Shown: positions 8,028 through 15,100 of the stretch, piece by piece
Position numbering within the stretch: the first letter of the stretch is position 1
How the letters are laid out: each line of letters opens with the position of its first letter
Assembly (NCBI GenBank): GCA_022447225.1
Contig: JAKVAZ010000006.1
Location: 496,001-560,000 of the forward strand
Origin: Fuerstiella sp.
Lineage (GTDB): Bacteria; Planctomycetota; Planctomycetia; Planctomycetales; Planctomycetaceae
Direction: 5' to 3'
Length of the DNA: 64,000 nucleotides
Notes under the pieces: generated by a model
What the model was told of the DNA's origin: nothing
What the model saw: the letters and a program-made list of their open reading frames with translations, nothing else
Databases searched by the model: none
Position numbers and translations under genes: made by a program

Positions 8028-9368
8028 TTACAACTCAATCTTTAGTTCTTCGATCTTGCGGTACAGACTCGACAGCCCCAGTCTCAACCTCTTGGCAGCT
8101 TCCTTCTTGTCGGGACACTGCTTGAGTACACGTGTGATGTGCAGTCGTTCATAGTGACGCAGGGCGGACCGAAGGTCATCGGTGTCCGGCAGACTTGTAC
8201 CGGCGCCCAGCAGGTCCGGAGGCAAGTCACTTGGTTGAATTTCATCGGTTTCACACATCATGACAGCACGTTCAATCGCGTTATCAAGCTGACGAATATT
8301 TCCTTTCCAGTGAGCCGCCATTAAGGTGCGAATGGCATCACTGGTAGCACCCGTGACACGTTTTCTCATGGTTTCACAGTGCTTGGCCGTAAAGTACTCA
8401 ACCAGCTCGGGAATATCGTCGAGACGTTCGCGCAGCGGCGGAATCCGTATCTTCACCCCATCCAGCCGGTAAAACAGGTCTTCCTGAAACTGCCCTTCGG
8501 AAACTTCTTTCATGAGATCCCGTGACGTTGCAGCAATAATCCTGGCATGTACCGAAATCGGTTCTGATGCACCACTCGGCATCACTTCCTGGTACTCGAT
8601 CGATCGCAGCAGTTCAGTTTGTGTGCCAAGAGGTAATTGAGCAATCTCATCCAGAAAGACCGTACCTTCACCCGCCGTCTGAAACAGACCAGGTTGTCCG
8701 TCACTGACACCAAACAACTGAGTTTCCAGTTGTTCAACCGGTCGGATTCCACAGTTCACCGATACGAATTTTGCATCCGTGTTCGGACCCGCGTTATGAA
8801 TTTCACGGGCAAACAGTTCTTTACCTGTTCCCGTTTCACCTACCAACAATACATTCGAATTTGTTGCGGCGACTTTGCGAATCGTCTTAAGCAGGTCCTG
8901 CAGGACCTTGCTGCTGCCGGTGAGTTGATCGAATCCCTCGGAACGATCCAGGTCTTTGCGCAACTTCTGATTCTCGCGATACAGTTCCTGAAACTTGAAC
9001 AATCGTTCCAGCCGCCGCGCCAGTTCGTCGAAATTAACAGGCTTAACCAGATAGTCGAATGCACCGGCCGTAAACGCTTCCACAGCGTTTTCGACTGTCG
9101 CATACGCAGAAATAATCAGCACAAACATTGCCGAATTGATGCGATGCAGACGTCGCAGCAGCTGGACCCCGTCACCGTCCGGCAGCTGCACATCACAGAC
9201 GGCCACATCGAAATCCTGTTCGCGCACAAGCCTGAGCGCTTCTTCAACCGTTCCTGCCGTTTCAACGCCAAAGCCTTCACCGGAGATAAACTCAGCCAGA
9301 GTTTCCCGAATGATTTCTTCGTCTTCGACAATCAAAATCGATTTTTGCTGCAATGCCGGTTTCGACAC
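8028..9368 (-). CDS. NtrC-type response regulator lacking the GAFTGA loop
   Basis: A 446-residue three-domain regulator. The receiver (about 8-125) has acidic VEDEE, phospho-Asp in VAVCDVQLPDGDG and Lys in YLVKPVN. The AAA+ domain has Walker A GETGTGKE and Walker B GTVFLDEI. The C-terminus has a Fis-type helix-turn-helix (KKEAAKRLRLGLSSLYRKI). Between QLFG and GLFQTAGEGTVF the loop is only VSDGQP, about eight residues shorter than in NtrC, and GAFTGA is absent. GAFTGA is the loop that contacts sigma-54, so this protein probably does not activate sigma-54 promoters in the usual way. The start is a GTG at 9368 after AAGGTGAAG. No histidine kinase is adjacent. The fabZ-like gene follows 16 bases after its stop. 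Confidence 0.92.
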   Translation of the reverse strand: MSKPALQQKSILIVEDEEIIRETLAEFISGEGFGVETAGTVEEALRLVREQDFDVAVCDVQLPDGDGVQLLRRLHRINSAMFVLIISAYATVENAVEAFTAGAFDYLVKPVNFDELARRLERLFKFQELYRENQKLRKDLDRSEGFDQLTGSSKVLQDLLKTIRKVAATNSNVLLVGETGTGKELFAREIHNAGPNTDAKFVSVNCGIRPVEQLETQLFGVSDGQPGLFQTAGEGTVFLDEIAQLPLGTQTELLRSIEYQEVMPSGASEPISVHARIIAATSRDLMKEVSEGQFQEDLFYRLDGVKIRIPPLRERLDDIPELVEYFTAKHCETMRKRVTGATSDAIRTLMAAHWKGNIRQLDNAIERAVMMCETDEIQPSDLPPDLLGAGTSLPDTDDLRSALRHYERLHITRVLKQCPDKKEAAKRLRLGLSSLYRKIEELKIEL

Positions 9369-9667: not shown

Positions 9668-10162
9668 TCAGGCAACCGGTGGATTCTGATCGACCGTCCA
9701 CCCGTTGAGCCCCAGGAACTCATCCTTCCAGTGATACTGTTCCAGCAGCCCACCAACATCCCGGCGCATCAGCCGATGTGCCACGTAGACAGCTTCAATC
9801 GTCGCCAGACCTTCTGCCGGGTCTTGGTACAGCTGAGACACGCGAGGATACGCAGTGGCTACGGTGGGAAGGGATCGGACAGGCAACTCAGAGTAGAAGG
9901 GTTCCATACGTGCGACGAGCTTCCAGGTGCCATCCAGCACCAGTAAACCGCTGTCGGAGTCCGATTCCGACAGTTCCTGACCGCCGATCCCGAGACGAAT
10001 ATAACGGTCGAGAGAAATGGGAGCTTTGTTCGGAAATCGTACAAACAGGAAGTCATTCCGGCCGCGAAGTGGCTCCACGGTACACTTCGAGCGCCTCTCC
10101 CGCGGATGAACGACCATCACAGTGGGCAATCGACTGATTTGAGAAATATCCTGCTCAGCCAT
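9668..10162 (-). CDS. Tsr3/DTW-like SPOUT acp-transferase homologue
   Basis: A 164-residue protein resembling the Tsr3 (DUF367) and DTW families, which transfer an aminocarboxypropyl group from SAM to rRNA or tRNA uridines. [20 protein letters not shown] is followed by [15 protein letters not shown], the D-x-T-W core. A C-terminal [13 protein letters not shown] helix and an ending FLGLN recall the Tsr3 C-terminus. The ATG at 10162 lies inside the last codons of the upstream 58-codon gene, an 8-base overlap that implies translational coupling. The substrate, rRNA or tRNA, cannot be decided by eye. Tsr3 itself is described mainly in archaea and eukaryotes, DTW proteins in bacteria. The gene is well supported; the exact family is an inference. 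Confidence 0.75.
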
Positions 10163-10331
10163 TGCGAATCTTCTTAATTTCTTCCTGAAGCTCAGCAATC
10201 TGAGCTTCCATTCGCGGAATATCTTCCGGATCGTCGGGCTGCTGCCGAGCAGCATTCAACAACTGCTGAACTCGCTGAATCTTGTTCTTTGCAGCCTCAA
10301 TCTGCTTCTTTTGCTTCTTGTTCAGAGCCAT
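10155..10331 (-). CDS. 58-residue basic coiled-coil protein, unknown function
   Basis: A small open frame reads [18 protein letters not shown], continues through a short Pro/Asp linker ([11 protein letters not shown]) and ends in a second amphipathic helix [18 protein letters not shown]. It would form a short helical hairpin or a coiled coil, with a basic N-terminus that could bind nucleic acid. Its stop lies within the start of the Tsr3/DTW-like gene (8-base overlap), the usual sign of a coupled pair. Regular heptads and the overlap support it as a real gene despite its size. I recognise no family. A role as a partner or RNA-binding aid of the downstream enzyme is a guess from position only. 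Confidence 0.7.
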
Positions 10332-10569
10332 TCAGCGTATCCAGTGTAGGTTTCCGGAGCTTCATTGAACTGAAGGTTCACAGCCCACGTGGCGGGAAGT
10401 CTCAACTTTGAGTGTCCCAATCGAGTCAACGCGGAGAACCAGGAAAGTGACAACGACTCCCCTGCCGCAACTCACGGCCGGCCGCTCCGGCAAAACTGTT
10501 CATTGACACGTTCCACCGGCCGAATGCGAAGTATTTTAAATTGTACCGGGGACCGTCGGAAATGCGATC

Positions 10570-11793
10570 ATGAATGACGACACAGAAAACCTGTTGAATT
10601 TGATCGAAAGCGCAGTCCGCGGAGTGAACCTCCGGCGAGCTGTACTGAGCCGGCCGACCCGACGCAGTCCGACAATCGCAAGCCGTGTGGAAATCCGACC
10701 GGTCTTCTTAAAGGAAAAGCAGTTCTATCAGTGGTCGGAACAAAGAGGTTCACAGGCATTCCACGAAAACCACGATCCTCAGTCCACCCTGACTGCGCTG
10801 CGAACTGCGATCGGAAGGAATTATCGCCACATTCATTTAGCAATCGATGATCGGCAGTGGTCGGCCCGCTTCAGCCGTCGAGGAAAATGTCGCCTGATCC
10901 CTGAGAAACATGTAACCCCTCCGTCAAACACTGAGATCGGTACCGGTCATAACCGAGAGCGGCAATACCTCATACCGGAGGGGCATCCCGTACCTTTTCT
11001 GATTGAGACGGGCATCATGACGCCGGCTGGAAAGATTCGGGCCAGACATTTTCACAAATTTCGGCAGATCAATCGCTATGTTGAGTTCATTGCCGATGTC
11101 ATCGACCGGCTTCCACATGAAGAAGTGATTCACATCGTGGATTTTGGATGCGGAAAAAGCTATCTGACGTTTGCGACCCACTATTATCTCACACAGATCG
11201 CACAGCGCCAGGTGGCGATAACCGGACTGGACCGCCGAGACGATGTTGTGCAGACCTGCGGAAGGATCGTCGAATCACTGGGACTGTTGGGAATTCACTT
11301 TGAGCAGGGTGACATCGCCACGTTCAGTCCCGCAGACCACGTCCATCTTGCAGTCTCACTACACGCATGTGACACTGCGACCGACGATGCAATCGCCCAG
11401 GCGGTACAATGGGAGACAGATGTCATTCTGTCGGTGCCCTGTTGCCAGCACGAACTGAATGCCGCTGTTCAGACGGGTCAGATTCCGTTGTTCTCCCGTC
11501 ACGGCATCCTGCAGGAACGTTTTTGTGCCCTGACAACCGACGCTGTTCGAGCCGCACTGCTGGAACGGGTCGGATATCAGACTCAGGTCCTCGAATTCAT
11601 CAACATGGAACACACCGCAAAAAACCTGCTGATTCGAGCCGTCCGACGGAACTCAAACATCGAAAGTCCACAGATGGAACAGATCACCAAAGAACTGAAG
11701 CAAATCCGCAGTATATTCGGGATTCCTGATCTTCAGCTTCAACAAAGGTTCCAGGAAACCGAAATGCTACAATCACCTGCTGAGCTTTTATGA
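10570..11793 (+). CDS. Class I SAM-dependent methyltransferase (Methyltransf_32-like)
   Basis: A 407-residue protein with an N-terminal domain of about 170 residues without clear motifs, then a Rossmann methyltransferase domain. HIVDFGCGKSYLTFATHY is the SAM-binding motif I; HLAVSLHACDTATDDAI and SVPCCQHEL are the later motifs typical of the Methyltransf_32 group, which includes relatives of Trm13 and METTL25. The target is unknown, though RNA is likely for that group. It starts with the ATG at 10570 and is followed after 50 bases by a glycosyltransferase gene on the same strand. Nothing is odd about length or codon use. Confidence 0.82.
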   Translation: MNDDTENLLNLIESAVRGVNLRRAVLSRPTRRSPTIASRVEIRPVFLKEKQFYQWSEQRGSQAFHENHDPQSTLTALRTAIGRNYRHIHLAIDDRQWSARFSRRGKCRLIPEKHVTPPSNTEIGTGHNRERQYLIPEGHPVPFLIETGIMTPAGKIRARHFHKFRQINRYVEFIADVIDRLPHEEVIHIVDFGCGKSYLTFATHYYLTQIAQRQVAITGLDRRDDVVQTCGRIVESLGLLGIHFEQGDIATFSPADHVHLAVSLHACDTATDDAIAQAVQWETDVILSVPCCQHELNAAVQTGQIPLFSRHGILQERFCALTTDAVRAALLERVGYQTQVLEFINMEHTAKNLLIRAVRRNSNIESPQMEQITKELKQIRSIFGIPDLQLQQRFQETEMLQSPAELL

Positions 11794-13073: not shown

Positions 13074-14546
13074 TTACGATTGTCGGCTGGTCGCCGTTTC
13101 AGACTCGTGCCGGAGCAATGGGAAAAAGATGACATCGCGGATACTGCGACTGTCGGTCAGCAACATGACCAAACGATCGATGCCGATACCCAGACCACCG
13201 GCCGGAGGCATTCCGACTTTCAGTGCTTTCACGAAGTCATGGTCCATTTTTGCCATAGACTCTTCTTCCGAAAGTCCTTCAAGCTGGGTCCGAAACAGTT
13301 CCTCCTGCAGCATCGGGTCATTGAGTTCGGTATACGCATTCGCCAGTTCCATTCCTTTGACAAATAACTCAAATCGTTCGGCGATGTTCGGGTCGTCCCG
13401 TTTTCGTTTTGTTAGCGGGCAAATCGAGGCGGGGTAGTCGATCACAAAAACCGGTCCGTCCAGGTGTTCTTCCACCGTCTCTTCAAAGACATCGTTGATA
13501 AGCACATCCAGGTGCTTGCCGTCCGTGTCAATGCCCAGCGACCTGGCTTTCGTCTCCACTGCAGCAGAATCCTGCATGTCGCAGCCCGCGTATTCCGCAA
13601 ACAGTTCGGCATAGGGACGCCGGGACCACGGAGGCGTGAAGTCGATTTTCTCATCCCCCCAGGGAATCACAGGAGATCCACAGACGGACTGGGCAGCGTC
13701 CACCACAATCTGTTCCGTCAGATCCATCATGCTGCGGTAGTCACCATAGGCCTGGTAGATTTCGATCATAGTGAACTCAGGATTATGGGTCGCATCGACC
13801 CCTTCGTTCCGAAACACCCGACCGATCTCGAATACTCGCTCGATTCCTCCCACCATCAGTCGTTTCAGATGCAGTTCCAGGGCAATCCTCAAATAGAGTT
13901 CCATGTCGAGAGTATTATGATGCGTCACGAATGGCCGCGCGGCGGCTCCGCCGGCAATCGAGTGCAGAACAGGTGTCTCCACTTCGTGAAAATTTCCGGC
14001 ACGCAGCGTTTGTCGTACCGAATCGATGATGGCAGATCGACTGAGCATACGTTCCAGGACACCGTCATTATAAATCAGGTCGAGATAACGCTGTCTCAGA
14101 AGCGTTTCCACATCCTTGACAGCGTGAAATTTCTCAGGGGGCTGGGACAGCGACTTGCACAAAACGGTCAGGTGTGAAACCTTGACCGATGGCTCCCCGG
14201 AATCGGTTCGCCACGTGACACCGTCGATGCCAATCAGGTCACCGAGGTCAAGTGCCCCCATCAGAGCCCACTGATCTTCACTGAGCTCACCCCGTGAAAA
14301 CAGCAGCTGAATACGACCGGTTTGGTCCTTAACATCATAGAACCTCAACTTGCCGGCTTTACGCCGCAGCATAACCCGGCCTGCCAGACGCACCTGAATT
14401 CCCTCATCACCGGACTGATCAGGAACAGCGTCCCGTACCTCATTAATGGGCCGGTGACTATCGAACCGCCGGCCCCAGGGATCCTGCCCAAGTGACTCAA
14501 TTTTTTCGAGTTTTTCCAGACGAGCTCTCTCAAAGCGATCGACCAT
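13074..14546 (-). CDS. lysS: Lysyl-tRNA synthetase, class II
   Basis: Charges tRNA-Lys. The 490 residues contain the N-terminal OB anticodon-binding domain ([20 protein letters not shown]), class II motif 1 around [18 protein letters not shown], motif 2 [20 protein letters not shown] and motif 3 [14 protein letters not shown] near the C-terminus. This is the standard bacterial layout and length. The start is the ATG at 14546. It is a single gene, convergent with the mannosyltransferase-like gene and upstream of a long gap to csrA. Confidence 0.97.
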
Positions 14547-14893: not shown

Positions 14894-15100
14894 TCAATCG
14901 ACCAGCGGAGAGACAACCTCATTCGTTTCCGGTTGCTGTAATGCATCGCCGAAGTCGCACAATTCCTCACGAACAATATTTGTGCTTCGTGGCGCCTCGA
15001 CGCCAACGCGAACCGAATTCGGACCAACCCGAACGACCGTTAGCGCCACGTCGTCTCCGATAAGAATCCGCTCTCCTACTTTTCGTGAAAGTACCAACAT
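14894..15100 (-). CDS. csrA: Carbon storage regulator CsrA
   Basis: A post-transcriptional regulator that binds GGA-containing hairpins in mRNA leaders and blocks or alters translation. The 68-residue protein starts MLVLSRKVGERILIGDD and continues with the VRVGVEAPRS strand, including the RNA-contact Arg in the Val-Glu-Ala-Pro loop. These are the family's hallmark residues. Length is normal with a short acidic tail. AAGGAAA lies about 13 bases upstream of the ATG at 15100. It is monocistronic with its own terminator, and its targets cannot be seen here. In other bacteria CsrA often acts on flagellar and central-carbon genes; no flagellar gene is in this window. Confidence 0.97.
   Translation of the reverse strand: MLVLSRKVGERILIGDDVALTVVRVGPNSVRVGVEAPRSTNIVREELCDFGDALQQPETNEVVSPLVD

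What the first reader, a model, noticed from the sequence alone, without database searches (positions are those of the whole stretch)
9668..10331. 58-residue coiled-coil gene coupled to a Tsr3/DTW-like gene
A basic helical-hairpin microprotein overlaps the start of a putative rRNA/tRNA acp-transferase by 8 bases. Its size makes it easy to miss. The pairing could mark a bacterial enzyme with a small RNA-binding partner.
Basis: partly seen in the sequence, partly recalled or inferred. Interest (0 to 1): 0.6.

Follow-up and report, generated by a model that had tools for sequence, protein, structure and literature searches.

The report
Conserved microprotein beside Tsr3-like gene
A real, conserved 58-residue helical-hairpin protein of planctomycete bacteria is often, but not always, encoded in one operon with a known type of SAM-dependent RNA-modifying enzyme; each gene also occurs without the other, so it is probably not a dedicated subunit of that enzyme.

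Summary
A 58-codon frame (10155-10331, minus) overlaps a Tsr3/DTW-like gene (9668-10162, minus) by exactly 8 bases. Both are real genes. The microprotein is found in 107 of 150 sampled family genomes and the enzyme in 120. The microprotein evolves under purifying selection (median dN/dS 0.14) and is predicted to be a two-helix hairpin (pLDDT 89).
The enzyme belongs to the TDD superfamily (D-x-[ST]-W motif; Tsr3 is the top structural match), most probably the published "pc1599" family. It is a probable SAM-dependent acp-transferase, RNA target unknown. Six enzyme-positive planctomycetes have G at 16S position 966, so the classical Tsr3 site is unlikely.
The pairing is real but facultative. The genes are adjacent in 64 of 93 family genomes holding both, with 8-base overlaps in four genera and 4-base overlaps in seven others. 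They are apart in 29, including closed genomes. The enzyme occurs without the microprotein (27) and the reverse (14). Outside the family, co-occurrence is at chance and the two are never adjacent. The microprotein also keeps a divergent methyltransferase neighbour. A dedicated RNA-binding subunit is weakly supported; the microprotein's function is unknown.

The parts
10155..10331 (-). 58-aa helical-hairpin microprotein gene (ATG to TGA)
   Evidence: conserved in the family and phylum, purifying selection, AlphaFold hairpin
9668..10162 (-). Tsr3/DTW-like (TDD superfamily, probable pc1599 family) predicted acp-transferase, 164 aa
10155..10162 (-). 8-base overlap ATGGCTGA: start of the enzyme gene, end of the microprotein gene
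   Evidence: the same overlap in G071, G029, G040, G020 and G037
10570..11793 (+). divergent class I SAM methyltransferase (Methyltransf_32, weak TRM13 similarity), conserved neighbour of the microprotein gene
   Evidence: PF13679 E 2e-38; next to the microprotein gene in 19 of 41 named relatives
10332..10569 (.). divergent intergenic region, presumed to hold the promoters of both transcription units
   Evidence: geometry; no sigma-70 consensus found

Best explanation
Two genuine genes form a short, facultative operon. The first encodes a free-standing helical-hairpin microprotein that is old in Planctomycetota. The second encodes a TDD-superfamily enzyme that probably transfers the acp group of SAM to a uridine in RNA. 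The likely substrate is tRNA or an rRNA site other than the classical helix-31 position, because 16S position 966 is G in enzyme-positive relatives. The stop/start overlap probably couples translation of the enzyme to the microprotein by termination-reinitiation. The microprotein probably works in trans as its own small protein, most plausibly self-associating or docking on a ribonucleoprotein through its basic first helix, and is not an obligate part of the enzyme. Shown: both genes, conservation, selection, predicted hairpin, enzyme superfamily and active-site motif, recurrent but optional linkage. Inferred: enzymatic activity, RNA target, translational coupling, and every functional statement about the microprotein.
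For: Microprotein conserved independently of the enzyme; median dN/dS 0.14; hairpin model. Enzyme: D77 and W80 invariant in 14 aligned homologues, D-x-[ST]-W in 13 of 14; 5apg profile hit E 4.5e-8; Foldseek top three hits all Tsr3, E 5e-5 to 2e-4. D/E-x-S/T-W is the published acp-transferase signature (PMC7026641). Overlaps of 8 or 4 bases in 20 of about 59 measured adjacent pairs, spread over 11 genera. 16S reads UUCGAGGCAACGCG or UUCGAAGCAACGCG in enzyme-positive G001, G134, G297, G338, G307 and G343, so position 966 is G. No other DTW-domain protein was found in the own genome.
Against: Linkage in 21 genera and family-level co-occurrence (odds ratio 3.9, p = 0.0015, not corrected for phylogeny) are more than minimal and leave room for a functional tie. 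Overlapping or very close gene pairs often encode subunits of complexes (PMC10666635, title and abstract). There is no direct evidence of acp-transfer, and none for what the microprotein does. 16S of the window's own genome is incomplete.
Confidence: 0.65

Rival explanations
1. The microprotein is a dedicated RNA-binding or activating subunit of the acp-transferase. It would replace the N-terminal zinc-binding tRNA-recognition region that E. coli TapT/YfiP needs and this short enzyme lacks.
For: Adjacency in 64 of 93 genomes with both and recurrent 4- or 8-base overlaps; family co-occurrence p = 0.0015; the enzyme lacks an N-terminal extension with the TapT CXXCXXXXXXCXC motif (PMC7026641); basic helix 1.
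Against: 27 family genomes keep the enzyme without the microprotein, confirmed with a profile, some closed; 43 of 47 enzyme-positive genomes outside the family lack it; 14 family and 16 other genomes keep the microprotein without the enzyme; the microprotein equally keeps a methyltransferase neighbour.
Confidence: 0.17
2. The small frame is a leader or regulatory ORF whose translation controls the downstream enzyme gene, with no function for the peptide itself.
For: Position directly upstream with a stop/start overlap.
Against: The amino-acid sequence is conserved, and the gene persists far from the enzyme gene and in genomes without it.
Confidence: 0.04
3. The adjacency is only leftover ancestral synteny of a block [methyltransferase, 209-aa CxxC-headed protein] divergent from [microprotein, enzyme], without any functional meaning.
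For: In named relatives the methyltransferase is kept beside the microprotein in 19 of 41 loci and the enzyme in 22 of 41; six loci keep the methyltransferase but not the enzyme (counted by eye). Linkage is confined to one family.
Against: Repeated evolution or retention of overlaps in 11 genera suggests selection for a shared transcript.
Confidence: 0.14

Closest known systems
pc1599 family of the TDD superfamily (Burroughs & Aravind 2014, PMC4275035)
   Same: Short TDD-domain protein of planctomycetes-verrucomicrobia-chlamydiae, found by those authors in Planctomyces brasiliensis, a relative of the window's organism; TDD domain with the conserved tryptophan
   Different: The original record was not fetched, so membership rests on taxon, superfamily match and its being the only TDD protein found in most of these genomes; no small upstream gene turned up in the passages read
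Tsr3 (archaeal/eukaryotic small-subunit rRNA acp-transferase; PDB 5apg, 5ap8)
   Same: SPOUT-like fold, best Foldseek and profile hit, D-x-[ST]-W motif
   Different: 15-21% identity; far below the DUF367 equivalog cut-off (29.5 against 152 bits); the 16S of enzyme-positive relatives lacks a U at the Tsr3 target position
TapT/YfiP (DTWD2 family, tRNA acp3U47)
   Same: DTW superfamily and predicted chemistry
   Different: Below the Pfam DTW cut-off; no zinc-binding N-terminus; true DTW proteins exist separately in a few relatives (G042, G134)
Rop/Rom-type helical hairpins
   Same: Size and two-helix antiparallel shape; Rop binds RNA as a dimer (own knowledge)
   Different: No sequence relation; Foldseek E above 1, as for any hairpin

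Membership tests
TDD superfamily acp-transferases | D/E-x-S/T-W catalytic motif | tested here: met
   DGTW at residues 77-80; D and W invariant in 14 homologues; motif definition in PMC7026641
TDD superfamily acp-transferases | SPOUT-like TDD fold | tested here: met
   AlphaFold model pLDDT 86.6; top Foldseek hits 5ap8 and 5apg, probability 1.00
TDD superfamily acp-transferases | SAM-dependent acp transfer to uridine | not testable with these tools
   needs biochemistry
Tsr3 proper (DUF367 equivalog) | score above the curated NCBIfam/Pfam cut-offs | tested here: not met
   PRK02287 29.5 against 152 bits; PF04034 20.6 against 29.9 bits
Tsr3 proper (DUF367 equivalog) | target U (or pseudouridine) at the position equivalent to yeast 1191 / E. 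coli 966 | tested here: not met
   G at 966 in six enzyme-positive planctomycetes; the own-genome 16S is incomplete
TapT/DTWD2 | basic N-terminal extension with the four-cysteine zinc motif | tested here: not met
   protein starts about 13 residues before the first strand; no such motif in the alignment
pc1599 family | clusters with Protochlamydia pc1599 and the Planctomyces brasiliensis protein | not tested
microprotein in a known Pfam or NCBIfam family | score above a curated cut-off | tested here: not met
   best DUF1090 21.5 against 24.4 bits; ICE_RAQPRD 21.7 against 50 bits; other hits are generic coiled coils
ribosomal protein bL29 | significant sequence match to the small helical-hairpin ribosomal protein | tested here: inconclusive
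   E about 0.05, no better than unrelated coiled coils

The most novel reading that the evidence does not exclude
A previously unnamed planctomycete microprotein family acts as a detachable RNA-recognition or activation partner of a bacterial TDD acp-transferase that lacks its own RNA-binding extension, in the lineages where the two genes overlap.
Probability: 0.13. Interest if true: 0.6.

Novelty: new member of a known kind. Interest (0 to 1): 0.35.

Why it matters
The bacterial Tsr3-like family has been described computationally but not characterised in any paper found here. Its presence in organisms whose 16S lacks the Tsr3 target raises an answerable question: which uridine does it modify? 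The microprotein is an unnamed conserved family that is easily missed in annotation.

Tried and rejected
Spurious ORF: rejected by conservation and dN/dS. Leader peptide: rejected because the gene persists away from the enzyme. Obligate subunit: disfavoured by phyletic distribution. Homology to bL29, Rop, DUF1090 or RAQPRD proteins: only weak, coiled-coil-level matches. Classical Tsr3 rRNA target: not available in relatives. An rRNA covariance search found 16S in only one of 15 relatives, apparently because rRNA is withheld or missing in the held genomes, so the 16S test rests on the pattern hits. A shared neighbour for the microprotein outside the family: none general; a CCA-adding-enzyme-like gene lies nearby in three genomes only. 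A promoter scan and Rfam gave nothing. Literature searches found no paper on this microprotein, nor any that mentions both acp3U and planctomycetes.

Full report
Observation. The minus-strand frame 10155-10331 encodes [58 protein letters not shown] (58 aa), and the frame ending at 9668 encodes a 164-aa Tsr3/DTW-like protein. They share ATGGCTGA, an 8-base overlap.

Is the microprotein real? Yes. A single-sequence search found it in 107 of 150 sampled genomes of the family, and a profile found strong matches (E below 1e-10) in 20 genomes of other families of the phylum. The aligned copies start at an equivalent ATG and are 54-62 aa long. K9, L25, Q31 and D33 are invariant in the 31-sequence alignment, with most of the KKQKKQ head and the DDP turn nearly so. 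Median dN/dS over 42 pairs is 0.14. AlphaFold gives two helices, 5-30 and 37-57, with pLDDT 89. Helix 1 is strongly basic and helix 2 acidic. No Pfam or NCBIfam family reaches its cut-off. Solved-structure and fold matches are generic coiled coils and hairpins. Named relatives are Planctomycetaceae MAGs (Fuerstiella, Gimesia, Planctomicrobium and others).

What is the enzyme? Pfam DTW and Ribo_biogen_C match below cut-off, and the DUF367 equivalog is far below its cut-off. An alignment profile finds V. distributa Tsr3 (5apg) at E 4.5e-8, and the AlphaFold model finds 5ap8 and 5apg as its top hits. The motif D-G-T-W is conserved. PMC7026641 describes D/E-x-S/T-W as the acp-transferase signature, with D as the likely base and W shaping SAM binding. 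Burroughs and Aravind (PMC4275035) already described a bacterial Tsr3-related family, pc1599, mainly in the PVC superphylum, and recovered a Planctomyces brasiliensis protein with an archaeal TSR3 query. The enzyme is therefore best filed in the TDD superfamily, most probably in pc1599, and not as Tsr3 proper. Its target is probably not the Tsr3 site: six enzyme-positive planctomycetes carry G at the position equivalent to E. coli 966 (the placing of 966 in GAUGCAACGCG is own knowledge). The own-genome 16S is incomplete. The own genome has no second DTW protein.

How firm is the pairing? Of 93 family genomes with both genes, 64 (21 genera) have them adjacent on one strand and 29 (15 genera) do not, including the closed genomes G013 and G048. 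Some unlinked cases are on different contigs of drafts. Among about 59 measured adjacent pairs, six in four genera have the 8-base overlap and fourteen in seven other genera can use a 4-base overlap; start choices are mechanical. The enzyme occurs without the microprotein in 27 family genomes, confirmed with the profile. The microprotein occurs without the enzyme in 14. Within the family the two co-occur more than by chance (odds ratio 3.9, p = 0.0015, no phylogenetic correction). Outside it they do not (4 of 20 microprotein genomes, p = 0.76), and in those four they are on different contigs.

Neighbourhood. In named relatives a divergent Methyltransf_32 protein (window 10570-11793) lies beside the microprotein gene in 19 of 41 loci, and an unannotated 209-aa protein with a CxxC-rich head lies there in several. 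Six loci keep the methyltransferase but not the enzyme gene at the site. The ancestral block seems to be [methyltransferase, 209-aa protein] divergent from [microprotein, enzyme]. Outside the family the neighbours are not conserved.

Conclusion. The idea of a dedicated enzyme partner is possible in the linked lineages but is not what the distribution favours. The function of the microprotein is unknown. The statement that it acts through self-association or RNP binding is inference from shape and charge only.

Noticed in passing
10570-11793 (+): Methyltransf_32 class I SAM methyltransferase with weak TRM13 (tRNA methyltransferase) similarity, conserved as divergent neighbour of the microprotein gene even where the Tsr3-like gene is gone.
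   Followed up: partly
L061, L078, L146, L151, L156, L160, L167, L171, L178 (beside the microprotein gene), L081 and L092 (beside the Tsr3-like gene): A roughly 209-aa protein with a CxxC..CxxC head, without Pfam or NCBIfam match, is a recurrent neighbour of the microprotein gene or of the Tsr3-like gene.
   Followed up: partly
L230, L232, L233: In three genomes of other families in the class, a 427-aa CCA-adding/poly(A) polymerase-like gene (named by eye) lies near the microprotein gene.
   Followed up: no
L199 (G042), L200 (G134), L201 (G307), L202 (G291): A few planctomycetes carry a canonical DTW protein in addition to the Tsr3-like one, so two acp-transferase-type enzymes can coexist.
   Followed up: no
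14894-15100 (-): CsrA-like small regulator near lysyl-tRNA synthetase (13074-14546, -); CsrA named from its sequence by eye.
   Followed up: no
8028-9368 (-): Sigma-54 response regulator downstream of the Tsr3-like gene, on the same strand.
   Followed up: no
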